From NCBI RefSeq assembly GCF_027942865.1, contig NC_134526.1:21619784-21683783 (forward strand): DNA of 64,000 nt, read 5' to 3'. Each line of letters begins with the position of its first letter. Position 1 is the stretch's first letter. Made by a program: the position numbers and the translations under genes. The stretch is from Odontesthes bonariensis (Eukaryota > Chordata > Actinopteri > Atheriniformes > Atherinopsidae). A model generated the notes under the pieces. The model was not told the origin of the DNA, made no database searches, and saw only the letters and a program-made list of their open reading frames with translations. This document shows, one piece after another, positions 5,361-61,276 of this stretch.

Positions 5361-6000
5361 GGCTACACGAAAACGAAACGAGGTTTTTTTTTAAAACGGG
5401 TACGAAAATTATTGCGACCACACAGGAAAGCTTCTGTAAAGAATCAGGTCCAGATGGAAACGATGAAAACGCTGAAAACGATGCAGTACACACGCCACAC
5501 CTAGGCCTATATGTGCGCTGTAAGCCACCCCCACCGGTTACACCAGAAAAATAGAAGAAGCAATGCGCATGCGTGTACGCCCCTACTTCTACCAGCGCAT
5601 CACCTGTAAATGTTCCTTCAACAACGCCGCTGTAGTTAGCAGTGTCTGCAGCAGTGCTACTATCAATGTTGTGGGGTCCATGATGATCGCTGTCTGTCCT
5701 TGTTGTGTTGTCTTCTTCTTCCGGATTTTGAATGGAAGCCGCTTTTTGTTCTGGTCACTGACGTATGTGTATACGTCACTGGCGTTGGCCATGTGGCTGT
5801 GACGCAGATGTAAACGAATCCGTTTTGGCTGTAACAATGGAAACGAAACGACGCCGTTCTCAGATCTTCCCACTCTGGAACCCGTTCTCCAAAACTATCG
5901 TTTTGGGGTAGTGGGAACGCCGGCTCCGTGTGGCCGCGACAGCCAAACGATAAGCAAAAGTATCGGTTACAGTGAAAAACGTTTCCGTGTAGCCGTAGCC
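5361..6000. mobile_element. PIF/Harbinger-type MITE, copy 1
   Basis: The element begins GGCTACACGAAAACG and ends with the inverted counterpart CGTGTAGCCGTAGCC. TTA flanks both ends (5358-5360 and 6001-6003), the 3-bp TWA target duplication typical of PIF/Harbinger. The left end lacks the first six bases of the doubled GGCTAC seen in the copy at 16,019. It is 640 bp against 381 bp for that copy, the extra sequence being internal. No transposase is encoded. Confidence 0.75.
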
Positions 6001-12188: not shown

Positions 12189-12392
12189 ACACACAGCCTG
12201 AGCTGAAGTGAATGCAGAGAGAGGAGGGGAAAGCAGAGCACAAGCGAAAGAAGGTTAGCCAGCACCGAGTGAAGAAAATGGCGATCTCACAGGATGAATG
12301 CCTCCCCTCGTAGATGCTGCAAACGCGTTGAATTTCTTTAGCCTTACAGTCGGCTTTCCTTTCCACTCTGTTGCACTTTATACTTCAATGAG
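12189..12392 (+). promoter_or_regulatory. tnrc6a: Putative first (non-coding) exon and promoter region of tnrc6a
   Basis: A consensus splice donor, CAATGAG|GTGAGC, follows 12,392. The upstream sequence is purine-rich and of 5'-UTR character. A CpG-richer block with few repeats follows at about 12,430-13,050, as expected just inside the start of a housekeeping gene. The transcription start is not visible; 12,189 is only the end of the CA-rich run. A short ATG frame near 12,277 closes quickly. The exon is inferred from the donor, the CpG context and the downstream leader exons. Confidence 0.4.
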
Positions 12393-13692
12393 GTGAGCTT
12401 GCTTTTGTGGTGTTTTCTCAAGCTTTTTCTGTCGAGCTAATGCAGACCGGGAGTGTGGAGCAGGGAGACCGGGGGTCGGTGTAGATAAGTTGAGCAGCCG
12501 CTGTTGTTTGGTTAGCCGCGACCGAGCTAACACTGCAAGCCTTTTGCCCGTACAAGGGGCACTTGGCAAGGCGACTCAATTGCAGCACAGTTTACAAATG
12601 CGTAGACAAAATGCGGGGTTGTGTTTGCCTGCACATTACCAACCATTTCAAAGCGTCTTACGGACAAATACTTGTATTTGGAGGCGGCTTAACCTTGCGC
12701 CAAGCATACTAGTTAACCTCAGCTCGCCAGCTGTGCGTACATATCTGTCAAAATAGGTTATTCTGTCATTTGTAAGATATAAATGTCTATCTAGATTTAC
12801 TTCCCAGAGAATTGTGCGGGCTGGGCTTTGTGTCCCATTATGTTTTCTACATTCACGGTTTTACAGTCGCTGCATTCGAAGTAACACCGGGTAAGTCAGC
12901 TAGCCCCTTCGTAGCTCTTAGCATTAGCAGCAATGCTAATTTGACGACGCAGGTTGCTCGGCGGTTACAGCGGTCAGTCGTCTGGCATTTTGGTCACTTG
13001 CGCCTTATACGCAGCTCTGTAAATGTCGATAAGCACCCACATTTTTGTGGCCATCTTATCATTTACTTGAATTGCTTATTGAAATTGTAAAACCTGCAGA
13101 ATTGTGTTTCGAAGTGAGTGTTCAACGCCCTCTATCGGTGTAAAAAGCATCAACAGATCAACACAAGACCTCCGCTCCTCTGGTTTTGCAGTCATATTCA
13201 CCGTACTTAATGCAGTGAGCCGACGGCAGTGTAAAGGCGACTCAACCGCGTTGTAATTTAATAAGATTATGTTTTTTTTTTTCCAAAAAAAAAAGACATC
13301 CCCTCAAGGCCATGTTTTTTTATTGCTGAACAAACCTCTGGCTCGAGAGAAGCCATGTTGGTTAAGCTGTAAGTCAGGCAACAGCTGAGATAATGGCCGA
13401 TCAGGACCTGAGCTGTAACTTTGACCTACACGCACACTCTCACTCGCTGTCATCTTTACACGATTTCTCTTCACGTTGTAGGGTCCGAGCTTTAAGGGTC
13501 CCCGGTTGTGCATTGCCGTGTTTAGCAGCTCGACCTGCACTTCCACGCAGGCTACCTGCTTTGCACACCGAATTTACTGATGAGTCAGTTTGTTTTTGTT
13601 TGTTTTTTTGTTTTGGGGGTGGTTGCTGGAATGATGCGTTTCATCGTGTGCATTACTGAGATGTTTTGATTACGATGTTGCTCTCAGGACAG

Positions 13693-13877: not shown

Positions 13878-13929
13878 AGATTTGGAATTGGAAGCTGTTG
13901 CCACCAAAGAAACTGAAGCATCATAACAG
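13878..13929 (+). other. tnrc6a: tnrc6a leader exon 2 (non-coding, ancestral coding frame)
   Basis: A 52-nt exon lies between a strong acceptor (TTTTTCTCCATTCAG) and donor (ATAACAG|GTCAGT). Read with its first base completing a codon, it gives DLELEAVATKETEAS followed by TAA and CAG. This resembles the start of human TNRC6A as I remember it (ELEAKATKDVERN). The in-frame stop means the exon cannot be coding in that frame, so it most likely sits in the 5' UTR. It joins in the same frame (phase 0) to the exon at 19,882. Confidence 0.65.
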
Positions 13930-13949
13930 GTCAGTCTGTCACCATAAAC

Positions 13950-13950
<1 letters not shown>

Positions 13951-13999
<49 letters not shown>
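13951..13999. repeat. (CA)n microsatellite
   Basis: Pure CA dinucleotide repeat of about 24 units, starting 21 bp after the donor of the upstream leader exon. Confidence 0.95.
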
Positions 14000-14003
<4 letters not shown>

Positions 14004-16018
14004 TCACTCGTATTCAGTTATTAGAAGCTGAAGTGCTGTAGGTGTTTTTAACACAAGTTATTACAATTCAGCTGCACACCAAGCTAGTTAGCACATTTTT
14101 TATGATAATGGCCCTCACTTTCAACAGGGTTTTCAGTTAAGAGTCGGTGTACATACGTGCCAGTCTAAGAGCATCAGTTTGCGTCAGTTTTCTGGCTGTT
14201 TCTCTTTAGATTATACAGGACTCTGTGTGGTGTGCTACCGAAGTGGGTGGGTGGGGGTTGTGTGTCTGTGTCTGTGTGTTTGGGGGGGGGGGGGGGCGCC
14301 TCCTGCTTATGCTAGCACATGCAGTTCCGTTTGAATTGAATTGGAGGGTCTGGGTTGGTCTAGGCCACATTGTGCTGATTAAGCTTTGCTGTTTTAAAAT
14401 CGCTAAATGAGAAGCCAGGGTCCTGATGTTTTGTGTGTGTGTGCGTGTAGAGGTGTTTGAGCAGCTCATTGTTGTCATACAGTTGGTTGACACGCAGACA
14501 CACAATAGCGCAACGAACCGCAACTTGTTCATCGCCTCGCTCAAAAGACACAGTTTTAATCTGTTCTCTGTTTTTGGAAGCTCGCATCTCTTGGCAGATC
14601 TAGTTTATCTGCTCAGTTTCCTGAACGGAGCTCTTGTTTTTTTTTTTCTTCTTTCTTGGTTTGATTTTGCTGTAATTGTCGAGACCCACATGATCAACTC
14701 ACCGCTCCTCTGTTAGATGGAATGATGTGCTTTTGTGTTTGGGAATCATTAAAAGAAGATATCTATCCTCCTGCTGTGTGATAGTGATTCGTGGTTTTTG
14801 TGGTTTGGTAAGGTCCTCTGTTATGGTGGTTTGTTTGGGGCCGGTTGCTAAAGCTAGTTTATGTTTCACAGTTTCCGAGCACAGGGCCATATTTTCCAGC
14901 TGTGTGAATGACGGTGAACTGTTGTATTAATACTCTTAATATAAAACAGTTTGGATGAGTTGTCATTTATTTATTTTATTTATCTTTTTTTTTTTTTTTT
15001 TTTTCCAAGGCACGCTGCCGTCAGAGAAGTTTCTGCTTGAGGTCATTCCATCAAAGTTTTTAGGAAGTGTCTTTGTTGTCATGTTCAAAAAGACACTTTG
15101 TCCTTAAGTTAACAGATGGCGTTCTGTGGACGTTTCTGTAGCGGGCAAACAGTATCAGAAATGTGATTCTTTTGAGGCCCTTGTGGGGATTACATTCCTC
15201 TGCGCAAAAACTGAATACATGCACAGCACTCTACTCTGAAGCCCCTTAGCACGAGGAAACCTCAACTGTTAGTCATACTCTAGTCCCCTTTTGTTTTCTG
15301 GAGCCCTGTTCCTTTTTCAGTCTTAACAGGGGGGGGGGGAGAAGAAGAGGAGTGTCATAGGTAATTAGTTTGGAATGTTGCTATTTTACCTTTTGACTCT
15401 ATCACTTTTGGCTATGTGGGCCCTTTTTTATGTTTTATTTTTTTTTTACATAACTTTTCTCTGATCTTGTTGTCGATCTAAACTTTGTTCTTAACAAAGT
15501 GCTAAAGCAAGCGCAACACAAAATGACTCCTAGCTAAAATGGCCAGGCTGAGATTGTCTTGTTTGGAATTTAATACTGCAGTGCCATAAATTCCCAAGAC
15601 GTTGCAACATTTCTCCATTGGCTCTGCATTGGCCGGGGATCAGGTAGTTGACCATTGCCCCTCTGAGCCATTAAGCCACACCTGCAGATGGTCATGAGAT
15701 TGGAACAAGTAAGGACAGCCGTGGAGAATTTGATGCAGTTGACCCTGCGCAGGCTCAGACAGGATGTGAGCCTCGCAAAGCCAGTTTTGCATAAACAAGT
15801 CGTCAGACTGTGGCTCTGCAAGTGCATCTTTAAAGTTTGAATCACAGTGTTAGTGTTTATGTTCAGCTGCATCAAACGGATTCATAGTTTTACAAACTGA
15901 TCCAGGTCCTTTTTTTTTTTTTTTTTTTTTTTTTTACATCCCGTCACATTTACTTTTCAGCTTGCAGAACAACATGTTCCCAAAAATTTACATAATGCTC
16001 CTTTTATTCCTACACTAA

Positions 16019-16399
16019 GGCTACGGCTACACGAAAACGAAACGAGGTTTTTTTTGAAAACGGGTACGAAAATTCTTGCGACCACACGGAAACGCGCTGC
16101 TGTCCAGACGAAAACGATGAAACGATACAGTACACACGCCACTGTGTCACGCCACGCTGTGAGACAATAGAGAAGTGTTAAAATTGGCTCCCAGCGTCAA
16201 CGTGTGACTGACGCAAAAACGTTTTAGCTGTAACAATGGAAACGAAACGAGGCCGTTTTCAAACTTTCCCACTCTGGAACCCGTTTTCAAAAACTATCGT
16301 TTTGGGGTAGTGGGAACGCCGGCTCCGTGTGGCCGCGACAGCGAAACGATAAGAAAAAGTATCGTTTACAGTGAAAAACGTTTCCGTGTAGCCGCAGCC
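16019..16399. mobile_element. PIF/Harbinger-type MITE, copy 2
   Basis: 381-bp element with terminal inverted repeats GGCTACGGCTACACGAAAACG (left) and CGTTTCCGTGTAGCCGCAGCC (right), and TAA duplicated on both sides (16,016-16,018 and 16,400-16,402). Internal sequence such as AAAACTATCGTTTTGGGGTA is shared with the copy at 5361-6000. It is non-autonomous. Confidence 0.8.
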
Positions 16400-18924
16400 T
16401 AAGATTGATGCCACATGTCAACCTTTGCTAAAATAAAAGAAGGTGATTTAATCTTTTAAAACTGTTCCTTTTTTTTTTTTTTTTTTTTTTTTTTAAGTAT
16501 AGCTTGGTTAAATGAAAAACACTGCTGTGAAAGCTGGAAAGTTGAGTTGCTCTTTTCAGAGATATCACATTGCCTTCCTTGATTTGCTTTCACCTGAAAT
16601 GAACTGGCCTCATTTTGACTGCAGCAAACGGATATGATGCAGCTTGGCTGGAGACGTCACATGTTGTCGTCGGCTCCAGGAAGCCTTTGCTGTTGGGATG
16701 TTTGTGGTTAAAAGTACCTGTCGTCTATTAATTGGCGATTACTTTCCTGTGCCGGCCTTGGCGCTGACACGCTTTGAGAACACACTAATGCAAATTAATG
16801 CAAACAATGTGCAAATTAGCCACGCGACTATCCTTCTGGCTTTTGTTCTTCAGGGACAGGCACATCTCAAGTCCTATCAGCTTATGTTTGAGTGTATGTC
16901 TGGTGTACTTTCCTGCAATCGATACAGTCTTTGACTTTGGTTGCTTCAATGGAGGACTACTCCTACGTAATCTTATAGTTTAAATCCTCAGATTTCTGAT
17001 CACCACTTCATGAGAAGCCCTGGTTTATTTTTAGCGTTCCAGCTGTATTTGACAGCAGGCACGAAGAAGTTCACAAAGAGGACAGCTAAGTTTCAACAAG
17101 ATCTCTTCTTTCTTGTGAATCTTGCAAGAGTAGTTGGCTTTGAATCATTCTCTTGACCGTCACAGATCTTTTAAAGTTTTGGAGATATTTGGGGCCAAGT
17201 TGTTGAGGCGTAACTGGGGCAAGTAGTAGACTTTTAGTGACTCAGCATGTTTGAAAGCTTTAATTTTAAATCTGCCCTCACACAGAGCATAACGATACCA
17301 ACACAAGCCGATTAAAGCCTTTTCGCTCTGCTTGTAGTTGCAAGTTTGTCACCAGTGCTCTTGGAAACCACAGCTTCTAAGGATCCCAACTATCTGAGAT
17401 AATCGGGCTTGTTTACAACTTATGATTGGACCACGGGCATCAGACCTCTTTACGGCGGGCCAGTGAACAGGGCTTCCAGCTGTCCCGGCCACGGGTGAAT
17501 TTAGAAGAAAGAAAAAAATGAGACGTTACACTTGGTAAATGTGTGCCTCTGTAGAAAAAGCGAGCCATGTCCATTTGTGTCGTCCTGACCGCAGCATCCT
17601 CAGTGCAAAATAACTTGTGCGTCTGGGGTGTTGTGTTACCATTGTTGTGTCACCGAATCCTTTGGACTGGATGCCGTCAAAAGGCTTTCACGTTGCACTC
17701 GAACCAGATGTTTGCAGGTGTTTGCTGTTTTATTTTTCGACCGGTGAAAAAGGGTTCCAGCGATCTATTTCCAATATTTACTAATCTTTCATCCATCTGC
17801 TTCTAATTTTTTTTTTTTTCCCTCAGTCTCAAAATGTGAATTCATTTATTGACGTTCAACACGCCAAAGATTATATTTAGAGAGTAAATATTTCTGGAGA
17901 GCAGTGCCTTGTCGGCATCCAGCTGATGTGTATGTTAAAGTGAAAGTGTTGCATGTTTTGGTGTTGGCTTGGAGTACGTGTTTACACTCAGATTTGATTT
18001 TCTAGTACCAAGATGTGATAATAGCGAATCGTATAATAACTTTTGTGCACGTGAGACTTAATGGTGATGGAATAAGTTGTATAAAAAGTGTCGGTTGTCG
18101 TGTATTTAAGACAATCGCGGATGGGCGGTTATCGTGTAACCGGCCGTATTTGTTGTTACACATTAACTTTGACTCGGAAAGAGGACAAACGGAAAGCACG
18201 TGGTCGTTGCTTTCAGAAGGAGAGACGAAGTAAATGTGTGGAGGGTATTTTATTTTCAATGTTGAGTTGTTGCTTAATGAGCCAAATGTTGATCAGCAAT
18301 TACTTGTCACGTGATTGGCAAAACTGCTTCATCTTTGTTGTATCCAGTTTCTTTAATGTTTACATGAAACACCTCTGAACTTTGGACTGGTGGTCATATA
18401 AAACAATTAATATGTAGGTATCTGCCAGGGTCACTGCCTTGTCTGTCCTACGTTTGAATTCGCAGATCGAGTGTCAGGTGCTTTATACAGGCTCTTGTAA
18501 CTGAGTAGTTATTTAGTACTGTCTGACAGGAGAATAGGATAAAACCACCACCACCTCCCATTTTATTTTGGGGGAAGGGTGGAGGGGGGGGGGGGGGCTT
18601 GCTCGCAGTGCCCCCCTTCCCTCTCTCAGCTGTAGTTGTTGGGGGAAGGGCATTAGATGCCCCCATTCATGAACAGATGCTGTATGTGATGCGTATGCGT
18701 GCTCTCCAGGAGGGCTCCCACCATGCTCTGCGGTGGTTGTTGAGCCCAGAACCATCTGCTGAGGCACCTGATGGTTGAACGGGTGGGAACCGAGGGGGGA
18801 GGGGGCACATAAAAGGATGTTACAGAGATTTATTTGATTTTTTTTTAAAATCTCGAACAAAGTCGGTTAAAGCAAAAAGCTGTTATCAGTCATTTACACG
18901 TTGATCAGAGTAGTTTTGGTCAGT

Positions 18925-19130
18925 TGGCAGTGTTGGGTTGTGGTTAGAACTGGTGCCTCATAGCTTGGAGGGTCCTTGTTCAGATATCAGCTGGTTCGAG
19001 ATCGGGGGCTTCTCTGTGGGATTTCTCAAGATGCTCCAGTTTCCTCCAGCCGTTCTAACAACTTCTGCTCACATTCTTGTGTGGGTCTGCTTTGGTATAA
19101 TTAACTGGTAATCAGGTATACCAAGCCATT
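18925..19130 (+). repeat. Degenerate tRNA-derived SINE-like repeat
   Basis: The stretch GTGGTTAGAACTGGTGCCTC followed by CTGGTTCGAGATC and a CTCCAGTTTCCTCC block matches, with divergence, a common teleost repeat whose head looks like a tRNA gene (A-box and B-box-like parts). Edges are approximate and no target duplication was found. Confidence 0.55.
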
Positions 19131-19881
19131 CCTGTATTCTAACTGTCCAACAGGGAAATCATCTTTAACGTAAGAGCTGCATGCGCTGCATAGATTAAAC
19201 TCCTCTCACCACAATAGTGCCACAATATTCCTGAGAACCACTGTGCAATTGTGAAGTGAAGATGCTGCCAAATGATTAAGATCTGATGTTGCTACCATCG
19301 TGTGGGAGTCGTTGCAGCATCTTTGTGTGTATGTGCAAACGGAAGGGAAATGCTGTTCAGTAATCTATTTATCGGATTAGACTGCAGCCTGCAGCTCTCT
19401 CCTCGGGGCTAAATGGCACACCCACCAGGGCCAGTGCAGCTAAACTTAACTCTTACTGAGGGATAAGCGACAACCTCCCAAGAACACATTTACAATTAAA
19501 TAAGTTCATCATTCCAGACCTCAAAGAGTAATTTTGTGTTTTCTTTCAGATATTATTAAAAATATTATGACTGAACCTTTGCAGCCCGTTTTGCTTTTCA
19601 TAGTTCTGGTCAAAATCCCGATTGTTTGCATCCAGATTGTTTAGAGTTGGGTTTAGAATATGCAAGGAATCTTCACATCAAAGACGTTTAACTAAATTTC
19701 TTTGAACAGCGTATTTTGTCTGTAAAGAAGCGCATATTTATTAGAAAAACATTTGGATATGCGGTTTGATTTCAGTCCAAAACTTTTGAAAGTTTTCAAG
19801 CTCTTTGTCAGTCACTGTCACAGAAGTTCCATATGAAGAACAGACTATTTAGACTAAAGAATGTCCTCCTGTCGTCTACAG

Positions 19882-19980
19882 GGAACGCACCCACAGAGGG
19901 AAGAACAGTGGATGGAAGAGAGAGAAAGACGGAGAGTGTAACAAGAGAGGAGGATAAGAATCTACAGGACTGGAGAAAAG
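19882..19980 (+). other. tnrc6a: tnrc6a leader exon 3 (non-coding, ancestral coding frame)
   Basis: A 99-nt exon between acceptor CGTCTACAG and donor GAAAAG|GTGAGA, phase 0 at both ends. In the frame inherited from the 13,878 exon it reads GTHPQREEQWMEERERRRV and then TAA. The QREEQWMEERERRR part resembles QEEEQLMEEKKKKK near the human TNRC6A N-terminus (from memory). A short upstream ORF (ATG at 19,912, stop ending 19,941) lies in the same frame. A second frame is open throughout but needs an unidentified upstream start. Confidence 0.65.
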
Positions 19981-29677: not shown

Positions 29678-29679
29678 GC

Positions 29680-29848
29680 ATGGCTCCCATTCGGGATTCC
29701 GTCAGCCATTCCCCTAATCAAACAGGTGACTACATATTGCCTTCTCTTTTTTTTCCCCCCTTCCTCACAGTGTCTTACTTTGGCTGTCTGCAGAGAAATC
29801 ATCGAACTAGCTTTTGACCTTGACCAATGATGAATTGTATTCTTTGCT

Positions 29849-29884
<36 letters not shown>

Positions 29885-32800
29885 ATGAGTGGGAAAGAAA
29901 GTGGGTGTGAAAGGGTCCAAGAGGAGACTTGGCAAGCTAACATGATAAGCTGCTAGAGCTGGCAACCATTATGTGAGAGAGACTTTGAAAGTGAGAAGCA
30001 CTTTAAGTTACAAGGACAGAAAAATAGGCAGCTGAGCTGATTCAAAGTTTGTGCTGTCGGCATGCTATGCTCACAGCACCTGCATCAAAACTTTTCACGT
30101 TCTTATCAAACTGTGAGGATCTTTTTTTTGTTTGTTTGTTTGTTTTTGACCGTATCTCCAAAAATCACCAACTTTCTGTCTTCAGCTAAACTTAATGAAA
30201 TCTAGGTGGTTGCTGCTGACGTAACATTCTCTCTTTGTAAGGCTTTACAGTTTTACAGTAACATCAGAAGTATCATAAATCTGTTGTACTACTGCAGGAA
30301 TTTGGTTTGAGACCGAATATTCTGCTAAATAAGGCATTACTACAGCATTGAAGATTTAGGTGCTTGCCCCTGTGATAGGATGAGCTTGTGCTGAATGGTC
30401 ATGAAAGCAAAATTGGATGTGGTTTGTGAGATCTAATTTTAGACGCATGCCAGGTCTGAATGCTGGTCTCTGGCAGTTAACATATTATATGTGATTACCT
30501 CCTCTTCTTTGCCAAATCCTGCCCTCACTTCCTTCGTCGCGCCCCCCCTTCTTACTCTGTTGCCATCTTCGCTATGCTCTCCGACTGACTATCGTCTTCT
30601 GCCTCACTGAATCTTAGTTAACTCCTTTGGCATGCTTTTGGGTCCTGCTGTGGTGACAAAATGGTGACAGTCGTTTCCAGGGGCAGGCCTGGCAGTGATC
30701 ACATCCAGAACAATTGGGTAGCTGAAACTTGGAGGGAAAAGTAAAGCATAAAAAAAGTGTGAATGGTGGTTTAATATAGTACACCTTATAAGCTCATGTT
30801 ATTAAATGCTTGTATTTTCTTTCCAAAATAGCTTTTTTTTTTTTTTTTACTTCATATTAATCAGTGTCGTCTGCTATGTCCATCTTTTTCATCCAGGTCT
30901 TGAGCATCCTGGCTTGGACTCGCAGTATGAGCCTTCCCCCTGGTCCTCTGGCTCCCCCTGCAGCAGTGACGGCAACTGGGGCAAAGTCCTAGTGGACGGA
31001 AGTACCGACAAATCCAATAACCCTTGTTCAACCAGCTCCTCTGTCTGGCCTCCCTCCTCCTCTTCATTTTCTTGCTCGTCCTCCTCTTCTTCTTCTGGCT
31101 GCGGTTCAGGATCAGATCCTGAGTTGGCATCAGAATGCATGGACGCAGAATCTAGCTCCCCAGTTGGCTCAGAGAAAAACCTTGGCGCTATTGCTGCAAA
31201 TACAGTGATGATGATGTCAACAAATGCTTCTTCCTCAGTGTCCTCTACAGCCTCTTCCCCAGCCTCCTCTTTGGGGACTGCCACCATGATGGTCGGTGTT
31301 ACTGTGAATGGAGATACCAACGGTTGTCAGGTAATTGGAGGTTTGGGAACCATTAGCAGCGCAAATAATGGAAACAATTTCACAGGATCCTCACACTACT
31401 CCATAGCTGGGTCCAGCAGTATTGGCAGCAATAATATGAGTAACCACAACCACAAGATAGCTGGCAACAGTGGTGTATGGGGTACCCAGTCAGGCAGCAA
31501 CATGAACAGCACTGGTGGGAGTAACCCCTGCATTAATGGAGGGTTAAACCCAAACACTTTAAACCCAAATGCCAACCATGGTGCCTGGCCTCAGAATCAA
31601 ACCCCAAGTCCAGTGTGCCAGGGCCAACGGCCTCTACAGGCCCCGGGGATGAGTTCCAAACTGGGTTTGACTGCTCGGCCCCAGGGCCCCATGCTCGGCT
31701 GGGGTGGCATGGCAGCTCCAGACAACAGCAGTATGATGGAAGACACTGAGGTGAATAATGGTACATCGAACAGCAAGGTGTTAGGAAGCAGCAGCAGTGG
31801 AAATGGTGGTCTGCAGTCTGCCAACCTTAACACTGAATCCAATGGACCAAATAACACTATCATGATAAATACTACTACTACTACTAACACCACAATGACC
31901 TCTAGTCCACCAAACTCTACCGCCTCACCCCAAATTAGTGGGGATTGTTCCTGGGGTTCCATTGGAGGAGGAAATGGGGGTCCACTGGCCAATGGAAACT
32001 CATCATCTGCTCCCCAGCACCCCCAAGGAGAGTTGGGCAGTACTGGGGCCTTTGGTACGCCTTGGGGCGCAGCTACCTACCCTGTAGACAAGGGCCCCCC
32101 AAATGCAGACACTGTGAACCCCCAAATCTCCACTGCTGCTTTCAAGAGTAATAATAACCACAATAACACTGGGGCCCCACGCTGGGACCAGGGGCCCACC
32201 AATAACTCAAACCAGCCTCAGAGCAACTTGTCCTGGGGTGTTGGCTCCAATCAAATCCCAGGCTCTGCAGGCCAAACTCCAGGAAATGGAAACCAAACTA
32301 CTATGGGCCCTCCAGCAGGGATACCTCGCCCCTGGGGGAGCAGCGCGTCCTCTTCTTCCTCATCGTCGTCTTCTTCCACATCTAACAACAAGAATTCGAA
32401 TGGAGAATGGGGACCGACAGCTTCTGGAAACAACCATTCAGATGCTGGAAGTCATAAAGGAAGCTCTGCTAACAATGGCTGGAAAAGCCTTGAGGATGAC
32501 GCCATGGGGATGGGAGGAGCAGGTAGTGGAAGCCATGGCTTAGGAAGTGTCCCCGGAGGCTGGGGTCGCTCAGGAGGAAGTGAAGGAAGTGGCGAGAGCT
32601 CCGGAGGTAGATCTAGCTCAGACAGAGACAGCAACCAGTCTAAAGGAGGAAACCGCAGAAAAGGTACCCAGCCAGCATCAGTACTATCAGCTGTGGCCCA
32701 GGCCGACGTGGACCCAAGGGTTCTGTCCAACACTGGATGGGGACAGACACCAATACGGCAGAACACTGCTTGGGATGTCAATTCTCCCTCTAAAAATCAG

Positions 32801-33295
32801 CATCAGGGTCCCAGAGCAGAGGAAAGAAAGCAAAGTAGTGGAGGCTCCGGCTGGGGCACAGCAACTCCGGCAGCTCCCTCCCAGACCTCTGGAGGTACGA
32901 ACATGTGTATTTTAATGTGTACAAAAGTTGCTATTACAGAAATGAACAATAGAATAAAATAATCAATGTACTCTTCGTGTACTTGCAGGTTGGGGCGGTG
33001 GGCCAAGCAACTCAGGCCCAGATAGTGGAGGTTCTGGCTGGGGAGAGAAAAGACAAACATCTGGTTGGGACAGTAAAGTCCCTCCTAATGGAGGTGGGCA
33101 AAGTGGCTGGGATAATGGACCCAGTTACAAGAATAGTAACAATAGTAACACCTGGAGCAACAACATTAAAGACGACAGGTTATTAATATCTTTACTTTCA
33201 GCCATAACTGATTTTCAATTTTTAAATGTCCTCCTTTGGAAGTCTTTTTTTTTTTTCTTTTTAAACTGCCTAATTTAAACTTTACTTACCATGTT

Positions 33296-33329
<34 letters not shown>

Positions 33330-35489
33330 GTCCAATACATGGACTAATGCACCCAAACCACAGCAGGGCTGGGGTTCCAACAGTGGAAATGGAAATGATA
33401 CTTGGCCCGGTAGTGTTGATGGTCCTCGAGCAGGGGCCAAAAGCCACTGGGGGGAACCTCAAAAAGGTGCCGGCTCAGTGGGCTGGGACAGCGACAGCGA
33501 CCGGTCCGGCTCTGGATGTTGGAGTGAGCCAAGCCGAACCAACACCAGCAGCAGTAACACCTGGGTAGGCAGCGGAGGATCAAATACTCCAGACCAGAGC
33601 ACTCCAAACCCAGGCTCCAACTGGGGAGACTCGGTCCACAAACCTAACCCTCAGAGTAACACTCAAAACTGGGGTGAGCCGATGAAGAACAACCATGGAA
33701 CTCAGAACTGGGGAGAGCCAAATTCTAAACCCTCTGAGTGGGGAAAAGGTCCTGAATCCAACATGTCTAGAGGCAATCAAGTTCCTAATAAGCCAACAGG
33801 TAGTTATCTGGATTTTTCATCTTATTTTGATCTTAGATCTTAGAATTGATTTTTTGATTTTTTTATTTTTAAGTTTTATTCATATGTTAAATAAGAGTTT
33901 AGACAGTAAAACATTTCAGTGAAATGATAACTAATAGTTTTATTTATATTTCAGGCTGGCTTGGAGGCCCTATACCCACAGTAGGTCAGAAGGAGGAAGT
34001 GTCAACTGGGTGGGAAGAACCTTCTCCAGAGTCTATCCGTCGGAGGATGGAGATCGATGATGGAACTGCAGCTTGGGGAGATCCTGGTAAACACTTAACA
34101 AATAATAAATCTCTTCTTTAGAAAGCTTGTATGAAATCATTCGAAATGGTGGGTTAATCATTTTCAACTATCAAACTTGACTTTTAGGTAAAAACAGCAG
34201 TGGAGGTGTCAACAAGTGGAACAGGACTAGTCAACCAGATCAGGAGGCCACCGGCCCATCCTCTCAGCCCCAGTCCCACCCAGCACACAAAACCATGCAG
34301 CATCTTAATGAAGAAAAAAGCTGCAACTCTGGTAGGTTTGAATATCTTAATATGCATTAATGAACTGCAGTTACGGGTTAGAGTTTTTGCTTTTTCTATG
34401 TCTTTAATGTTGAGGGACATGCAAGCATCTGGCCATGACACGAGGCAGTCATTAAAATGCGACCAGCATGCATGTACAAGCCCTCTGGTGCTGTGTTTGT
34501 CATGAGACGTCTCTGCATTGACAATTTTAGAGTTTAAATGGTACAAACAAAGTAAATGAGAGATGTGCACAGAAAAAAATATTCTTAGTGTGACCATAAC
34601 CAGACTTTTAACATCCATATAAACAGTTAGTCCAACCAAAACTGTATGAAATTTCCAGACTGTCGCTCTGCTCTAATGAAATACAGTTTTTTATAACAAC
34701 ATTGTCACTATCTCTATCTGTGTAGCAGTTAAATTCAGCTCTACTTACTTATACTATGATCTTCCACAGAAAAAGGTTTACCCCCCTTCCTGGTTGCCTG
34801 TGTCGAAAGGGCTTTTTGTAAAGCCAGTTGAGTCATCCCTTTGGAATGCTAAGAGCATCCATTTTTCTCTTCACCTTTTTTTTCTTCTCTTCCCTTTCTC
34901 GCTCGCCCGCCAGTTTTACAAGAAACGCACACAAACTTTTGTTGAGCTTCTGTATGAGAGAACAAGAGAGGCCGTGAGAGGCAGAGGAGCTGTGCTGCCT
35001 CAGTAATGGGAATAGTTCCAGTGTAAGATGGGGAAATCTAAAACAAGCAGTGCAGCGTTTCTGTGGAAGGGGCCTGAGAAGGAAAAAAGCAGAAGGGATT
35101 GTTAATTATTCAGAGTTCCTGGTGTATGAGCTAATCGAAGCCGATACGTGGACAGATAGGAAGGGCAGGAAACTGCACTGTTTAGCATTTTGACTTATTT
35201 TCATTAATTTTGTTCGTACGTTGGTGCAAAAAAAAGTCATTGAAAAAAGAAAAACCAGACTCAAGTGTTGTTTTCTTAGTTGGAGATGTCTTAAAGCAAC
35301 GGGCTGTACTTTTGAGCAGATAAACTCCAATCAAGTTTATTTTTGCATGAGCTAAGCAATAGATTGCAGATTGTGTCCTGTCCGCGGTGTTTTCCTTCAT
35401 GATGAAGACCTAAACCTGCCAAGAAACCCAACTTTACCGTGACCTCCTGGTAATGTTGGCACCAAATTGCAGTGCTCACGGGTGCAGAG

Positions 35490-35539
<50 letters not shown>

Positions 35540-38500
35540 TTAAGACTGGATTTTGGGGCAGAATGAGGTTTGGGCTAAGGGTTGGTTATTCAGTTGTGAT
35601 GGTTAAGATTTGCGTAATTGGGCCCACGTGTCTCATCTCGTATCTCAGTCTGCTTTGCTTTGTGTGCTTCTTTGGGATGTTATGTATGGAAGCCCTCATG
35701 TACATGCACAATCACAAGAGGAACTTGGAAGCCTGAAGCCACCCCATGATCTGTCCTATTTTTACTGAGTGGTATCCCTGGCATCTCCAGAAACTCCTCC
35801 TGTGAAGGGAGAAAGTGGTTGCTCTGGCTGGTCAGCTGTAACGGGAGCCTTTTGAACTCGGACATGCACTTTAAAAAATACATATACTCGCATCTGAAAG
35901 GGTATATATCTAAATAAACTCTTACACGGTCACATTGACACAGGCTTCCCTGGTGACATGAGCCACGGCCCTCACTTAAATTTCCATTCCCTGATTCCAG
36001 CAGAAATGACAGTGAACTTTGTGAGTTGGGTCCTGTCACCCTTCATGTAATGCAGACCACCTTCCAACTCTGGGCAAACACCTGGTATGACCCCTCAAAG
36101 ACCAGCTGCTTTACTAACTGCCGGCGTTAGCTATGACATTGAAGCAGAAATCTATTATTGCCGCCAAATACCAGTGATGTCTAAGCTATGTATGAGTACG
36201 CTCAACCTGTGCCATGGTTCAAATGGGTACCATTTTCTTTTTTTCCTCCAGGTTGGGGTGAGTCTTACCCCCAGCAGAAGGAATCCTTAACATGGGGGGA
36301 GCCTAAGGCTGCTCCACCTGTGACTGTAGACAATGGAACATCTGCCTGGGGGAAGCCTATGGACAGCAGCACCAGATGGGAGGAACCCAACAGGGATAGC
36401 AGAGAGTCTGGGTCTGGATGGGGCACCCAGCATAAAACGGGTGAGTGCACACTCACCTTTATTATCTTCAAAAATAAATTTGTGATGGAAGAGTTACTCT
36501 GTAGCAGGTGTCTATGTGCAGCACTGTGTACATGAAATGTGCCAATATTGAGTTGCCATCTTTCCCTTCCTCCGTAATAGCACCAGGTCCTAAGCCCATG
36601 GAGACATGGTGTGGTGAAGACGTGTCCATGAGCAATAGCTGGGATCAGGAAGAGGAGGTTGAGATCGGAATGTGGAGCAACAGCCAGCAGGACAACAGGC
36701 CTCATGACCAAAACACCTGGAACTACAAGCATAAAGGCTCTAACAGGGTTTGTGCACCTCAGCTTTCTACATTCAGTCATCTTAAACATGACATGAGAAC
36801 ATTTTATTTTAGTGAAGCTTGTTCTGGAGACAAAATGATTGCAGGTTTTTGTTTAAAAGTCCTTAAGGTCTCATTTCTGTCTTGTTTCAGATGAACAAAC
36901 CAGTCAACAAACAGGATGAACCCTGGATGAAACCTTTCATCAACCAGTTCAACAGTATGAATTTCTCTGTAAGTACCACCTCTGATTCACTTTTAAGTTC
37001 TGTCTCTTCAAATGGCTGAGTTGTGTTGGTATGCACCTGATTTCTGATATTGTCATAAAAGTTTTGTGAAGAAGAAAGATCATCTGGAACCATAACGGAT
37101 GCATCAAACATTTGACCTGTAATGTGTATGGAACATCCTCTGTGCCTGTTGCTACCTGATCAGCATTCTTAAGACTGTTTTCTGAAAACTTTCTTTACTG
37201 ATTAGCTTTGTTGTCTTTGAACCTGCAGAGAGACTCTCCTGACGACTCCATGAAGACGGGAGCAGGGATGGTGGCAGACAAGCGTATGGACATGAACAGT
37301 ATGGGAGACTTCAACGGAGTCATGGGGAAGAACCCTGGGTCCCGTCAGCAGCTCCACAAAGAGTCTGCCATGGATCGCAGTCCTTACTACGACAAGGTAT
37401 GCAGGCTTTGCCATTTTTACCGCCATTATAGCGTTCAAGTCGGAGGTGTTCTCAGCCCTGTTGTGCCCCTTGGTGGCTGTTCCATCACATTGCACTTGGG
37501 ATCTTTGAAAGGCGCGTTTCGTCTTGTTTGCTTTATGTTGCGTCATAAGTAATTCCCTGTCACAAACTACTGTTTGGCTCTGCCCTTGTCTCCAACTTTC
37601 AACCTTACTAGTTTATTTTTCATCCTCCCAACCGCTCCTTTTCTACTTGGCACACATCCTTCTCATTTCTCACGTCACCCCTGCTCGTTCATGAGTATCG
37701 TTTAGCTCGTCAAACTTCCCTACTCTGAACCTTCCATTTCCCGTCCCCGCATTCTTCTCTTTCCCCCTCCATCTCCTTGACTTTCTCCGTAAAATTAACT
37801 CAATTTTCTTTTCTCCTTCCCTTGCTGTGCTTCTTTGGCTGCTGATGTGCTTCCTGTCCCTCTGTGCAACCCGGCATCTGCTTCTGCAGCTTTCTGCTTA
37901 TGATAATCCAGCCTCTGATGAGCTCCCATCCAATCAAAGCATGAGCCTTTCCCCTAGAAATTCTGCTCAGCCTATGCCCTGTTGCAACTCTGGGCCATCC
38001 CCTTCCCTCTCTAATTCTGGGGCTGCTCAGCAGGTGAGTGTGGAAGGACGAGGGTGTGGTTGTCTTTTTGGTCTTGAGCCAGTTACCACAATCTACCGTC
38101 TACTGAACAGCATATGATCATCATTTACTTATTGAACTGTTTCTGTGTTAAATCATGACGTACAAAACAAAGGTTGAAGTGTCTTGTTGCACATTATAAT
38201 AATTTGCTCGTGTTTTGTGTTTCCCCTGCTCAGAATGTAAACCCCATGTTGGGTGGCAGCAGCGTAGCACAGGGCCGAGGCGGCCCCCAGTCCCAAACCC
38301 CACCTCAACCCAGTTTTCGTAACCAAGTGCCTCCACCCATCCTGCCCTCTCAGGTACTAAATGCTACACTTGGCTCTGACAAGCCCCTGAAGCGTTTGGC
38401 CCAGGAAATTAGTTTTTCACTGCTGGAGAAACCGAAAGAAAGGGTTTTGAAGTTGAGCTCTGGCTCCAGATAGCACTGGAACCACTTTGGTGGAAAAAAC

Positions 38501-40358
38501 CACTTTGGGTGTTTTGGCCCATTACAAACTGATTGCCCAAATCAAACCATATATTTGGTAATCATGTTTTTTTTTTTTTTTTCTCCCGAGCAGTCCCTTA
38601 GTTTCACAGAAGTATGAGAATAAACACTCAGGAGTTTGACATATAGCTTTTCCAATGTTAAAAAAATGTAGTGTCAACCAGTCATTACTGACTGAAGTGG
38701 CTTAAAGAGATTTGAAATTTTAGTCCAAACATTGTCAAAAAAAATTACCCAGCCAAAAAGATGTAATGCAATAAATGTTCCATCCCCAATTTAGCCACTT
38801 TCTTACACTTTTTGTTTTAAAAGTAGATTGTAGATACAAACCTGAATAGCATTATATAAACTTGAACCCTCGTCACATATGTATCCAGGTCCCTCCATCC
38901 CTGTTGAAGTACCCCGGAGGAAATGGAGGTCTGAACCCCCTGTTTGGCCCTCAGCAGGTGGCTATGCTCAACCAACTTTCCCAGCTCAACCAGCTGTCAC
39001 ATCTCAACCAGATCAACCAGTTGCAGGTACAGATGGAGATATTCTGCCACAGATGTAAAGGCTACATTTAAAAAATAACTAAGCTTTAATTAGATGTGTA
39101 GTTTATGACATTAAAGTTGTATTACAGACTTACAATCTCCATATTTTATGACCCCTGCTGTATAAAATGTATTCTGTTTACATTTTGTGACCCCCTCGTG
39201 TCTTTGCAGCGTCTTCTTCTTCAGCAGCAGCAGCAACAACAACAACAGCAACAGCAGCAGCAGAAGGCTCAAAACCAGAGAGCCATGTCTGTGGGTCGTC
39301 AGACAGATCAGGTGTGTGTCTCTTAAAACCTTCTGTAGTTATGCTAATTACACTTCTGGTTAGATAGTTATGTAACATTACATGGTGATTTCTCTAACCT
39401 TCCACCTCCTGTCCCCAGACACGTCCTATTGGTTCATCTCCATCAATGATGCAGCCGCCAAGACACCTGGACCCCTCCCTGCTGAAACAGACCCCACCAC
39501 ACAAACCATACCCAGACAACTACTTGTCCCAGAATGCTCCTGAGATGCAGAAGGATGCTGCCACTCTTGGATCCTTCAGCAACTTCCCTTTAAGTATGTG
39601 AACTACTTGCAGTATTTTTTTTCCTAAATTAAGTCAACCATATCCCCGTACTAAAGTGAAAAAATATCTTAATCCATAAACCGGTTGGTAAGTTGTGACT
39701 GACTTCTTCTCTTCCTCCAACCCCCACATTAGGCTTGAACTCTAACCTGAATGTATCCCTGGACATGGGTGTTGGTGGTGGAAGTAGTGGTGGTGGACCT
39801 GTGAGCTACAAAGAGCCACCCCAGTCCAGACTGAAGAGTCTTTGGGCTACTGACCCTCTGGAGCAGAACAGCAAACCTGGTACATATGAACTTCTTAGTG
39901 TTAGTGGCAGTGCATGCTGTTTGAACAACAATTACTCTAATGTAGAGCTGATTCAATGCGTTGATTGTTTCCAGGGTAACGAGGACAACAACTTACAGTC
40001 CTCAAACCCTTTAGAGACTTGAAATTTGCATTTGCTTAAAGATGCTTCAGTGCAGTATTCACTGATTATTATTTATTTATTTATTTTTAAAAACAATACC
40101 TGAGGCTGTAATTTTGTTACCCACGATGGTGCATGTGACTATATCTGTATTCTTGTTTGTTTTTCCCCACAGGTGCTATGTCGTCTGGCCTGCGTCTGGA
40201 GGACTCTCCCTTCTATGACTTCCTGTCTCCTGGCACATCTCACCTGAGTCCTCCTGGCCAATCAATAGGCTCGGTTGGCGATGGCTGGCCGCCCCGTGCC
40301 AACTCCCCCCCGCCCCATGGAAACACTGTCACCTGGCCCCCAGGTACATGTTGCCCAC

Positions 40359-40416
<58 letters not shown>

Positions 40417-43021
40417 TGCCAACACTTAGCAAAATGCGGAATGGTTTGAGAAATGGCTAATCTGTGCGTGTGCTTGTTTGCAGAGTTCCGGCCCGGGGAG
40501 CCTTGGAAAGGTTACCCCAACATTGACCCTGAGACTGACCCTTATGTGACCCCCGGCAGTGTCATCAACAACCTCTCCATCAACACCGTCCGAGACACAG
40601 ACCACCTCAGGGACAGGAACAACGGTGGGTCTAGCACACAAGCTGTTTTTTTTTTTTTTTTTTTTTTTAAATCAGCTGAAATTTTAGACCATTTTTTAGA
40701 TCTTCTGCCTTGGTGAATATCAAATAGGCAGATACGATGCAGAATTCTGTCAAATGCGACAGAGCCCATCATAATCTACTAACACTAACCCCCTGCCTCA
40801 CCCCCTCTTTATGTTTCCCAGGGCCATCCTCATCACTGAACACCACGATGCCTTCTAACAGTGCCTGGTCATCCATTCGTGCCTCCAGCCTCACCAGTAC
40901 AGCACAAAGCACTTCAGGTAGATTTGAAATTCAGCCAGTACGATATTGTTTTTCCTCCACTTCTTGAACCTAACAATAGTTGAAGAAAAAAGTAAGCTCA
41001 ACCCGAGTTGACAGTCACATAAATTCAGTTTCCTTTAAAGTGTGATGGAGAATAGTGAGATGTTTGAATCTAACAGCAGAAAGAGTTTTTTTTTCTTCTT
41101 ATCATGCTTGTTTTAAAAGCTGTTCCTGTAAACGCACCGTTTTCTCCGAGAACGTTTTGAAACATTTAGAAAGAAGACGCTGAACCAACATGTAAAGTGG
41201 ACTGGAGGTTGTAAACGCGTTTTATTCTTCTTCTCTTCCCTTCACAGCTAGACCCAGTGAGTCAAAGTGGTCTCCTGGCGGCGGTTCTGTGTCCAACTCA
41301 TCCCTTGCCCACGAGCTTTGGAAGGTTCCCCTGCCTCCCAAGGCGCTGCCAGTAGCAGCCCCCTCCAGACCACCCCCAGGCCTCACCGCTCAGAAGCCCA
41401 GCCCTGCCCCCTCCGGCTGGGATGGCTCTGCTCTGAGGCTGGGGGGCTGGGGCTCCACTGAGTCCAGATACACACCTGGTGAGAGAGGAGCAAAGACACC
41501 AAGCCTTTGCTTAAGATTGTATTGTAAAAATATGCAACAATCCTTTGGTTTGTTGACTCGCAGAACAAAAATATTGCCTTAGTTATTAATTTGGCATTAC
41601 ATTTTAATTAGCTTTACACTACAGTCAAAGTATGCTTGGTATGATCTCGACTTCTCTGGTAAATCAGATGACAGCAAGCAGCTTTGCATATTTTTCTTTA
41701 TCTCTGCCTGAAAAAGAATTTTGACTAAGTTCTGAAGGACTGTAAGTAGACTTCTTTTAAATCTGTGATATATCTGTTATATTCACTGCCACGAGTGACG
41801 ATTTCTGTGCTGTGGATTTCTTGGACTTGGATGTCTGTTAGGCAAGAGCTGCTCCAGTTGTTAGAACTTGATGCACGTAGGACCAGGACTGTCACAGTAA
41901 TCAAAGGTTCCTGATTATAATAATTTGTGCCGCCCCCCCCCCTCCCCCCAGCAGATTTCTGATTGCCTACTGTGTTTGTTTTCAGGTTCTAGTTGGGGTG
42001 ACAGCAGCAGCAGCTCAGGAAGAACTCAATGGCTCGTATTAAAAAATCTCACACCTCAGGTACTCACATGAACAAAAGTGGCACATTTTATTTGTACACT
42101 TGGAACTGAATGTAATGGCTGATTATCAGCTCTGTAATCTTTCTTTTTTGTGGGCTTCGGTTTTTTCTAGATTGACGGCTCTACACTGAGGACCTTGTGC
42201 ATGCAGCACGGCCCTCTGATCACATTCCACCTCAACCTGCCGCATGGTAACGCTGTGGTTTGCTACAGCTCAAAGGATGAGGCCGCCAAGGCCCAGAAGA
42301 GCCTGCACATGTAAGAAGATCGGACACGAAACAAACTCCAAACCTTCCTTTTTAGTCTTCATTATTATTCAGAAATGAACTAGAGAATCATTTGTCTCCT
42401 GACTTCCTAACGGCTTCATACGTGCATGAAAGTTTATTTTCACACACAGCTCATGTATTGTTGCTAATGTCACCTAAGTCTTAATCTTGGACTGATTAGC
42501 GGTTAGCTTCTTACCTGAGAGCGCTCACGCTGCTCAAAAGCACTTCACCCAACCCCTCTTGGAAAACTAAACAGAATATCTCTTTAAGACAGTGAATTAG
42601 TAAAATGACTAGCCACAGTAATAATGTGAATATGCTGATTGTAACCCACAGTCACCTGCTGTGTCTCTACAGGTGTGTTTTGGGGAACACAACTATTCTG
42701 GCTGAGTTTGCCAGCGAAGAGGAAATCAGCCGTTTCTTTGCACAAGGGCAGTCAATGGCCACTCCCTCCTCCGGCTGGCAGGCCATTGGCTCTTCTCAGA
42801 GCAGAATGGATCAGTCTCACCCTTTTCCCAGCCGCGCTCCCGAACCGAACCAGTGGAGCAGCAGCGATCTACACAGCTCTCCTCTCTGGGGCAGGCCCAA
42901 CTTTTCCAGTAGCCTGTGGGGGAGCCCCAGTGGCACCGAGCCGGGGGGGATCAGCAGCCCCTCTACAATCAGCTCCTTCCTCCCAGTGGATCACCTGACA
43001 GGGGGCGGAGACTCCATGTGA
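29680..43021 (+). CDS. tnrc6a: Trinucleotide repeat-containing gene 6A protein (GW182 family)
   Basis: Cytoplasmic P-body scaffold of miRNA silencing: its GW repeats bind Argonaute and its C-terminal silencing domain recruits PABPC1 and the PAN2-PAN3 and CCR4-NOT deadenylases. Inferred coding exons: 29680-29725, 30897-32894, 32989-33178, 33330-33799, 33955-34086, 34188-34331, 36252-36440, 36581-36747, 36891-36968, 37229-37396, 37890-38033, 38234-38353, 38889-39026, 39210-39311, 39419-39593, 39733-39879, 40173-40343, 40484-40624, 40822-40917, 41248-41478, 41986-42059, 42171-42310, 42673-43021. All junctions are GT-AG and keep frame, giving 1869 residues (human TNRC6A is about 1962). Conserved motifs include [19 protein letters not shown] (about 620-640), [19 protein letters not shown] (about 921-940), a UBA-like region (about 1113-1194), 14 Gln (about 1333), PRPPPGL-type SRPPPGL (about 1645) and an RRM (about 1698-1775). 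The C-terminus, ending [10 protein letters not shown], fits paralogue A (human HLGGGGESM) rather than B or C. The start ATG at 29,680 is inferred because it is the only upstream ATG exon splicing in the required phase. Confidence 0.93.
29855..29880. repeat. (GA)n microsatellite
   Basis: Pure GA run of about 13 units in the intron between the start-codon exon and the large coding exon of tnrc6a. Confidence 0.9.
30897..32894 (+). other. tnrc6a: Large GW-repeat coding exon of tnrc6a
   Basis: A single 1998-nt exon encodes about 666 residues, low-complexity and rich in Ser, Asn, Gly and Gln with dispersed GW/WG pairs. This is the Argonaute-binding half of the protein. It carries the family landmark [15 protein letters not shown] near its start and the Argonaute-binding motif [14 protein letters not shown] near its end. 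Ser runs and a Thr-Asn run come from TCC/TCT and ACT codon repeats that may vary in length. Both boundaries split a Gly codon (phase 1). Confidence 0.9.
39210..39311 (+). repeat. tnrc6a: Polyglutamine-coding CAG/CAA tract within tnrc6a
   Basis: Fourteen consecutive Gln codons (39,222-39,263), a mix of CAG and CAA, follow RLLL and precede KAQNQRA. They lie in the Gln-rich segment between the UBA-like region and the PAM2-like region. The CAA interruptions should make the tract more stable than pure CAG. Confidence 0.9.
40361..40413. repeat. (CA)n microsatellite inside a short tnrc6a intron
   Basis: About 26 CA units, starting 17 bp after the donor of the 40,173-40,343 exon. The intron is only 140 bp (40,344-40,483), so over a third of it is microsatellite. 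Confidence 0.95.
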
Positions 43022-44097: not shown

Positions 44098-44252
44098 AAG
44101 AGAAGATTAAAAAAAAAAAAAAAAAAACGAATTAAAAAAAAAATCGAAAATGCACAAAAAAAAAATTCAAAAGCCAAAAAAAAACTTTAAAAAAAAAATT
44201 CTATTAAAAAAAAAAGTATAAAACAAAGAAAAAAAACTGAAAAAAAAAAAAG
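44098..44252 (+). repeat. tnrc6a: A-rich block in the tnrc6a 3' UTR
   Basis: About 155 nt consists mostly of A-runs of 8-19 bases separated by short non-A spacers. On the sense strand it would give a strongly A-rich mRNA segment. Confidence 0.85.
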
Positions 44253-59627: not shown

Positions 59628-61276
59628 TCAGATCATCCTGTTACGTTTATGCGTAGGAGAGTCTGTGATGACATCACTACACTGGGTGGAGTTTCGTTTC
59701 CTGGCCCCTCCCGTGGAGCCGGAGCCTGTAGAGTCCAGATGCAGTGCCATCTCCTCTGAGATAAAAGTGTTCAGGTCGACATCTTGGAGCCCATTGCGCC
59801 TGCTGCGGCACACTGGCCCAGAGCCAGAGGAACCACCTCCACTTGCACCGCCTGCGTTACTGCTGCTCCCGCTCACATGTGTGGGAGAACCCGGAGCACC
59901 GGAACGCACACTGATACTGGCCATGGCCCCACTCAGACCTGTGGACGGATGTGAAGACACAGAAGACATCACGGCGGAGAAATAACAAAGATAAGCAAGA
60001 AAAGGCTACATTTAAAAATGACCTTTGATTAAATAGTTGCGAATACACGATTGGATCATTAGTAGCAGTCAACCTATAGTCAATTCATTGTATTCAGCAT
60101 TTTCAGACTGACAGGGAAATCTTTCATAATGCCATTAACACGAAAGGCTGAAAACTCAAACATAGATCTTCTCAGACGTTCTGAATGGAGGGGGAAAAAG
60201 AAGAAGAAAAAAAGCATTGCCGTGGCCAAGTATGAGCTTATAGTATCCCCTGAAGAACTCATTTAAATGCTAAAAAGGGCAGGTCCCTCGTCTTGAACTG
60301 TGACAAGTTTGTGCTGTTAAAATGTGTCAAGGTGAGTCTCTCGTGATGGGGAAGGACGGCGTGTAAACAGGACCGTAAATAGAACTTCACCTTAGAAAGC
60401 AACAGGAGCTACAACTGTAGCAAAACTGAGGGCCTGCAAAGTTCTTTAAAAGGTACTGAAAACACAACTCACAAAGGGCTCCAGGGAAAAAATAAATTAA
60501 ACTCAAACTGTCATAAACTAATCAAGGAGCCCCTTTTTCTTTTAGCCACTACTGCAGACCCAATACACCAGATTTAACACATTTTCATAATAAATATCAG
60601 TGCAGTAAATATCAAATATCCAGCAAACCATCTGTGCCCCAGATTAGCTAAAAGTACATTGATGTTATCAAGTTTGTGTACAGCATTTTTTACATGTTTC
60701 CAACGTACAAGTAAACATATTTGAGTCCCTTTATACAAACATTACTTGTGAAATACGAAGTGTATCAAATGACTGAGGCATGAGACGCACGGAAGCAGAG
60801 TCTTAAGTTGAATTTCTGTAACCTATTCCATTAAAAACCTAACCCCATCCAGCCTTCACCTCAGGTACACCCTTAACTGGCCCCTTTAACATGTGCACCC
60901 CTCCACATAAAGTACTGTATTTATTTATTTATTCATCTTGAGTGCAACAGAAAAACCAACACACGGTGCTATAACTAACTAATATGCATCTGCATATCTA
61001 AAACAAGAAAACAAAACCAAAATATCTTAAGTAGATAAAACAACACAGCTTCTCATGTGCTCTCTCACATTCACACAGAAAGTGTGAAACTGAGGCCCTC
61101 TTTCGCTATTGGCCAATACGCACACAAGCAAAACATACACTTATCTTTATGCCACATGTTGCAGAGTTGGGTTACTAAAGGACAAGTACGCTGTCACAAA
61201 CACGCAGAATCTCTTGATCACAAACTAAGATACTGTGTGTGTTTTTTTATATATGTATATAAATACATACATACAT

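What the first reader, a model, noticed from the sequence alone, without database searches (positions are those of the whole stretch)
13878..19980. Two tnrc6a leader exons keep the frame of the mammalian N-terminus but are broken by stops
Spliced together, exons 13,878-13,929 and 19,882-19,980 continue in one frame. That frame aligns without gaps to the human TNRC6A N-terminus as I remember it: ELEAVATKETEAS against ELEAKATKDVERN, and QREEQWMEERERRR against QEEEQLMEEKKKKK, with the same spacing. The fish frame has TAA after the first block and again after the second. Either an ancestral N-terminal extension has decayed into 5' UTR here, or the mammalian extension arose from leader sequence. 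Both would change how the GW182 N-terminus is understood.
Basis: partly seen in the sequence, partly recalled or inferred. Interest (0 to 1): 0.7.

Follow-up and report, generated by a model that had tools for sequence, protein, structure and literature searches.

The report
Fish tnrc6a leader retains broken N-terminus
In this fish, the gene for the microRNA silencing protein TNRC6A appears to keep the first exons of the mammalian long form as non-coding leader exons, so the locus probably makes only the short form; this looks like an ordinary but informative case of coding exons decaying into untranslated leader.

Summary
Both exons have highly ranked splice sites. Joined in frame, they match the human TNRC6A N-terminus (recalled, not from a database) better than chance: score 67, reached by 0 of 2,000 shuffled queries, best 59. 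Each block alone is at chance level (tblastn E 15 and 3.9). Both TAA stops are there (13,924 and 19,939).

The homology predicts a start exon ending ATG-AG|GT. ATGAGGT[AG]AG occurs once on the + strand, at 12,388, and its donor ranks 2 of 2,002. The old reading is MRDLELEAVATKETEAS-stop; a direct TTGGAA repeat (13,882-13,893) can explain its two extra residues.

The old frame is also out of phase with the GW-repeat ORF, and no PREVPPRFR-like or Q-rich exon was found upstream of that ORF. A candidate exon at 29,678-29,725 supplies an in-frame ATG, so a short GW182 form is probably made.

Best reading: an ancestral TNGW1-type extension decayed and its first exons survive as 5' leader. No transcript and no second fish genome could be checked.

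The parts
12200..12392 (+). Putative first exon E1; ends ATG-AG|GTGAGC (ATG at 12,388), the site predicted for the old start exon (codon M and two bases of R). The 5' edge is a guess.
   Evidence: ATGAGGT[AG]AG occurs once on the + strand of 64 kb and twice on the - strand; donor ranks 2 of 2,002. CpG o/e in 300-base bins rises from 0.31-0.57 to 0.67-1.11 from 12,201 on, but a 500-base bin at 5,501-6,000 is higher (1.05) than those at 12,501-13,500 (0.91, 0.87).
13878..13929 (+). Exon A: DLELEAVATKETEAS-stop-Q in the old frame; TAA at 13,924. Contains the direct repeat TTGGAATTGGAA at 13,882-13,893.
19882..19980 (+). Exon B: GTHPQREEQWMEERERRRV-stop-QERRIRIYRTGEK in the old frame; TAA at 19,939. 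Its third frame is open, but no leader ATG reads through it in the splice forms tried.
29678..29725 (+). Candidate exon C carrying the likely main start ATG at 29,680 (GGCATGG), [15 protein letters not shown], in frame with the GW-repeat exon.
   Evidence: First of the five candidate exons with an open frame listed between 12.4 and 30.8 kb; sequence; ORF continues into the GW exon.
30897..32959 (+). Large GW-repeat exon of tnrc6a: acceptor at 30,897; donor not determined (32,959 is where the open frame ends). Holds [12 protein letters not shown] with a second candidate start at 31,139.
   Evidence: tblastn to recalled human TNRC6A, E 3.8e-18; acceptor rank 17 of 1,818.
33903..43018 (+). Rest of tnrc6a (not modelled exon by exon): PABC-binding region, RRM and C-terminus.
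   Evidence: PF16608 TNRC6-PABC_bdg in three pieces; RRM piece matches PDB 2wbr GW182, E 1.9e-12, while its best Pfam hit, RRM_occluded, is below the curated cut-off; collinear tblastn hits.

Best explanation
E1 (ending at 12,392), A and B descend from the first coding exons of the TNGW1-type N-terminal extension of TNRC6A. In this fish that frame is broken by two TAA stops. It is also out of phase with the GW-repeat ORF, because the exons that would have bridged it (Q-rich, PREVPPRFR) are gone or unrecognisable. The splice sites stayed strong, so the exons most likely persist as a spliced 5' leader. Translation most likely starts at ATG 29,680 in exon C (or at 31,139), giving a short GW182-type protein. 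The old start ATG at 12,388 would now begin a 17-codon upstream ORF that ends in exon A, at most dampening translation. Shown here: sequence, frames, stops, splice-site ranks, and similarity to the recalled human peptide. Inferred: transcript structure, start codon, direction of change, effect on translation.
For: Joint score 67 against null means of 32-33, 0 of 2,000 shuffles. The prediction ATG-AG|GTRAG is met at a single + strand site. Splice-site ranks. No leader ATG enters the GW ORF in any of 5 splice forms tried; ATG 29,680 does in the 4 of 5 that include exon C. No VPPRF, KRGQ, KVPE or PRYPR motif on either strand; no run of 4 or more Q in any + frame between E1 and the GW exon. The downstream gene keeps GW182 features.
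Against: The human TNRC6A and TNRC6B letters are recalled. There is no RNA evidence and no second species. Each block alone is at chance level. The tail of exon B after the second stop shows no similarity (43% of 5,000 shuffles do as well). Two residues are extra near the start. The old start has a weak context (T at -3, A at +4), and a further ATG at 12,298 lies upstream in the same frame (47 codons to the same TAA). The CpG rise at E1 is not the strongest upstream of A.
Confidence: 0.7

Rival explanations
1. The mammalian extension arose from leader exons: E1-A-B were always non-coding, and tetrapods gained an open frame.
For: The exons are non-coding here with good splice sites; one fish alone cannot polarise the change.
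Against: The similarity is in amino-acid register with conservative changes (E/D, K/R), which is odd for sequence never translated in the fish line. The recalled TNRC6B N-terminus shares the MR start and the Q-LMED-KK block (6 of 14 identical to exon B, score 41).
Confidence: 0.12
2. Chance similarity between low-complexity Glu/Lys/Arg peptides and two ordinary leader or cryptic exons.
For: Each block alone gives tblastn E 15 and 3.9. Lysine-rich sequence at 44.1 kb scores better than either alone (E 0.012).
Against: Composition-preserving nulls are not reached in 2,000 tries; the best pair on the minus strand scores 39; the start-exon prediction is met.
Confidence: 0.07
3. The extension is still made here by an alternative splice form or by stop readthrough, or the stops are assembly errors or polymorphisms.
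For: Exon A keeps 8 of 13 residues, which suggests recent loss or remaining constraint. Exon B's third frame is open and in phase with exon C.
Against: Two stops, a phase mismatch with the GW ORF, and bridging exons not found; none of the 5 splice forms tried connects a leader ATG to the GW ORF.
Confidence: 0.11

Closest known systems
TNGW1, the long isoform of mammalian TNRC6A (Li et al. 2008; seen only as cited in passages of PMC10726160)
   Same: Exons E1, A and B align with its first residues (letters recalled) in one frame, with the same spacing between the two blocks.
   Different: In the fish the frame is stopped twice and the Q-rich and later extension exons were not found.
Short GW182 isoform of TNRC6A
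   Same: The open fish ORF keeps the [12 protein letters not shown] region, where the short human form starts (recalled), and GW182 features downstream.
   Different: The fish ORF can start further upstream, at exon C ([15 protein letters not shown]), for which I know of no human counterpart (from memory; not searched).
Coding exons turned into 5' UTR (a known mode of gene decay; recalled)
   Same: Splice sites retained, frame lost, gene otherwise apparently intact.
   Different: Nothing in principle.

Membership tests
TNRC6/GW182 gene | PABC-binding region, RRM and GW repeats downstream | tested here: met
   PF16608; RRM piece matches PDB 2wbr GW182, E 1.9e-12, Pfam RRM only below cut-off; GW-rich ORF.
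TNRC6A rather than TNRC6B or TNRC6C | Closest to human TNRC6A | tested here: inconclusive
   [11 protein letters not shown] and 95.6% over 45 aa against recalled TNRC6A; with N-terminal queries the best hit is E 3.8e-18 for TNRC6A and 1.4e-8 for TNRC6B among the rows shown. TNRC6B was compared only by its N-terminal part, TNRC6C not at all.
TNGW1-type N-terminal extension (homologous exons) | MR start exon in phase 2, then the ELEA...-Q.EEQ.MEE block in one frame | tested here: met
   against recalled human letters; the human exon junctions themselves were not checked.
TNGW1-type N-terminal extension (functional) | Open reading frame continuous with the GW region | tested here: not met
   TAA at 13,924 and 19,939, and phase mismatch.
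TNGW1-type N-terminal extension (functional) | Q-rich and PREVPPRFR segments | tested here: not met
   No PREVPPRFR-type motif in six frames; TNRC6A tblastn rows shown that lie wholly within residues 55-137 of the query have E 0.99 or more (output cut; most of the Q run was left out of that query); no run of 4 or more Q between E1 and the GW exon on the + strand.
Spliced 5' leader exons | Joined in a transcript | not testable with these tools
   Only splice-site ranks are available.

The most novel reading that the evidence does not exclude
The old start codon and exon A survive as a translated, selected 17-codon upstream ORF (MRDLELEAVATKETEAS) that now tunes production of the short GW182, so the extension was turned into a translational control element rather than simply lost.
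Probability: 0.1. Interest if true: 0.6.

Novelty: new member of a known kind. Interest (0 to 1): 0.33.

Why it matters
One T-cell paper says that TNGW1 has five more exons than short GW182 and that it is the short form that associates with Ago2 on activation (passages in PMC10726160). A vertebrate lineage that cannot make the long form from this locus would be a natural knockout for what the extension does, and would show that GW182 can do without it.

Tried and rejected
The whole-genome search that could have shown tnrc6b, tnrc6c or a second tnrc6a copy (genome search, own) did not complete. A literature search for human peptide strings gave 0 papers. In the listings I saw no title about the teleost tnrc6a N-terminus: all 11 papers, all 7, 20 of 27, 12 of 316, 12 of 90. 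Of three papers I saw passages only (PMC5785596, PMC10726160, PMC6885777); the rest were seen as listings. Li et al. 2008 is not held. Rfam: 0 matches at gathering threshold in the window. Pfam has no hit at E 0.01 for the big GW exon. I considered that exon B codes in its third frame (NAPTEGRTVDGRERKTESVTREEDKNLQDWRK): it is open and in phase with exon C, but no leader ATG reads through it in the splice forms tried.

Full report
What is there. The window carries a tnrc6a gene on the + strand. The GW-repeat exon opens at 30,897. The PABC-binding region (PF16608), an RRM piece matching PDB 2wbr GW182 (E 1.9e-12) and a TNRC6A-like C-terminus ending at 43,018 follow in order. The gene looks alive downstream, although I did not build a full exon-by-exon coding sequence.

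The two exons. With a simple weight matrix (frequencies recalled), their acceptors rank 22 and 11 of 1,818 and their donors 9 and 4 of 2,002 in the first 31 kb. Among the 28 candidate exons there that pass both thresholds, B is third and A seventh.

Chance. tblastn of the recalled human N-terminus against the window gives E 15 for block A and 3.9 for block B, and lysine-rich sequence elsewhere scores higher (E 0.012 at 44.1 kb), so neither block stands alone. The joint test asks for an ungapped match across a splice junction over all ordered pairs of candidate exons and all phases. A-B scores 67 and ranks first, tied with rows that differ only in outer edges (acceptor 13,551 or 13,688, donor 20,076). 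Shuffled queries reach at most 54 (whole query, 0 of 1,000 reach 67) and 59 (shuffled within blocks, 0 of 1,000). On the whole + strand, 0 of 300 whole-query shuffles and 0 of 5 block shuffles reach it; with lax splice thresholds, 0 of 76 and 0 of 1. The best pair on the minus strand scores 39 with the real query.

An independent prediction. If A is the second coding exon of a protein beginning MR (recalled for TNRC6A and TNRC6B), and A opens in phase 2, the first exon must end ATG-AG|GT. The shorter pattern ATGAGGT occurs five times on the + strand; with a good donor, ATGAGGT[AG]AG, it occurs once, at 12,388, 1.5 kb upstream of A, and twice on the minus strand. Its donor ranks 2 of 2,002. It lies where CpG o/e rises to 0.67-1.11, though 5,501-6,000 is another CpG-rich stretch, at 1.05. 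The spliced reading is MRDLELEAVATKETEAS-stop. An ATG at 12,298 lies upstream in the same frame (47 codons to the same TAA, weak context). Exon A holds a direct repeat TTGGAATTGGAA at 13,882-13,893; with one unit set aside the fish peptide runs MRDLEAVATKETEAS beside human MRELEAKATKDVERN without a gap. That last step is my reading, not a tool result.

Lesions. TAA at 13,924; TAA at 19,939; and E1-A-B ends in phase 0 while the GW exon needs one base from upstream, so even past the two stops the frame runs into a TAG in the GW exon, with or without exon C. After the second stop exon B shows no similarity to human (43% of shuffles do as well). PREVPPRFR-type motifs were not found on either strand. 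TNRC6A tblastn rows shown within human residues 55-137 have E 0.99 or more (output cut, most of the Q run left out of the query). No run of four or more Q occurs between E1 and the GW exon in the + frames.

Where translation starts. Exon C (29,678-29,725) comes first of the five candidates with an open frame listed between 12.4 and 30.8 kb. It carries ATG at 29,680 with G at -3 and +4, and its frame runs on through the GW exon. Of 5 splice forms tried (5' edge of E1 assumed at 12,200), none connects a leader ATG with the GW ORF. Start 29,680 is usable in the 4 that include C; without C the first in-frame ATG is 31,139, the MDAE start that corresponds to short human GW182 (recalled). The E1-A-B-C leader holds seven ATGs upstream of the one in C, among them 12,278 in a strong context (11 codons) and the old start (17 codons, weak context).

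Interpretation. Decay of an ancestral extension is the better reading. The match is at the amino-acid level, exon order, frame and block spacing are kept, and the recalled TNRC6B shares the MR start and the LMED-KK block, so the extension should predate the A/B split. Because exon A still keeps 8 of 13 residues, the loss is probably recent relative to the fish-tetrapod split, or the exon is under another constraint (splicing, or the upstream ORF); one species cannot tell. A passage in PMC10726160 says that mammalian TNGW1 differs from short GW182 by five additional exons including a Q-repeat domain, and that the short form is the one associated with Ago2 in activated T cells. The fish locus would then be restricted to the short type.

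Limits. The human letters are recalled; no other fish sequence, transcript or genome search was available. What would settle it is listed under next steps.

Noticed in passing
window 29,678-29,725: Strong candidate exon with a good-context ATG ([15 protein letters not shown]) in frame with the GW exon; likely the true protein start.
   Followed up: partly
window 13,882-13,893: Direct repeat TTGGAATTGGAA, the only one on the + strand of the window, that can account for the two extra residues against the recalled human start.
   Followed up: partly
window 12,212-12,388: Six ATGs in the putative first exon, one (12,278, AAAATGG) in a strong context with an 11-codon ORF and one (12,298) in frame with the old start.
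   Followed up: partly
window 5,501-6,000: CpG-rich stretch (33 CpG, o/e 1.05) upstream of the putative first exon; could be another promoter or gene.
   Followed up: no
window 59,628-60,005 (- strand): Piece of a TAPR1-like gene (PF15251, E 3.3e-20) downstream on the opposite strand.
   Followed up: no
window 19,882-19,980: Third frame of exon B is open for 32 codons and in phase with exon C but has no ATG upstream in the splice forms tried.
   Followed up: partly
window 44,101-44,247: Lysine-rich low-complexity sequence gives a better tblastn hit to the human N-terminus (E 0.012) than either block, a warning for similarity searches with this region.
   Followed up: no
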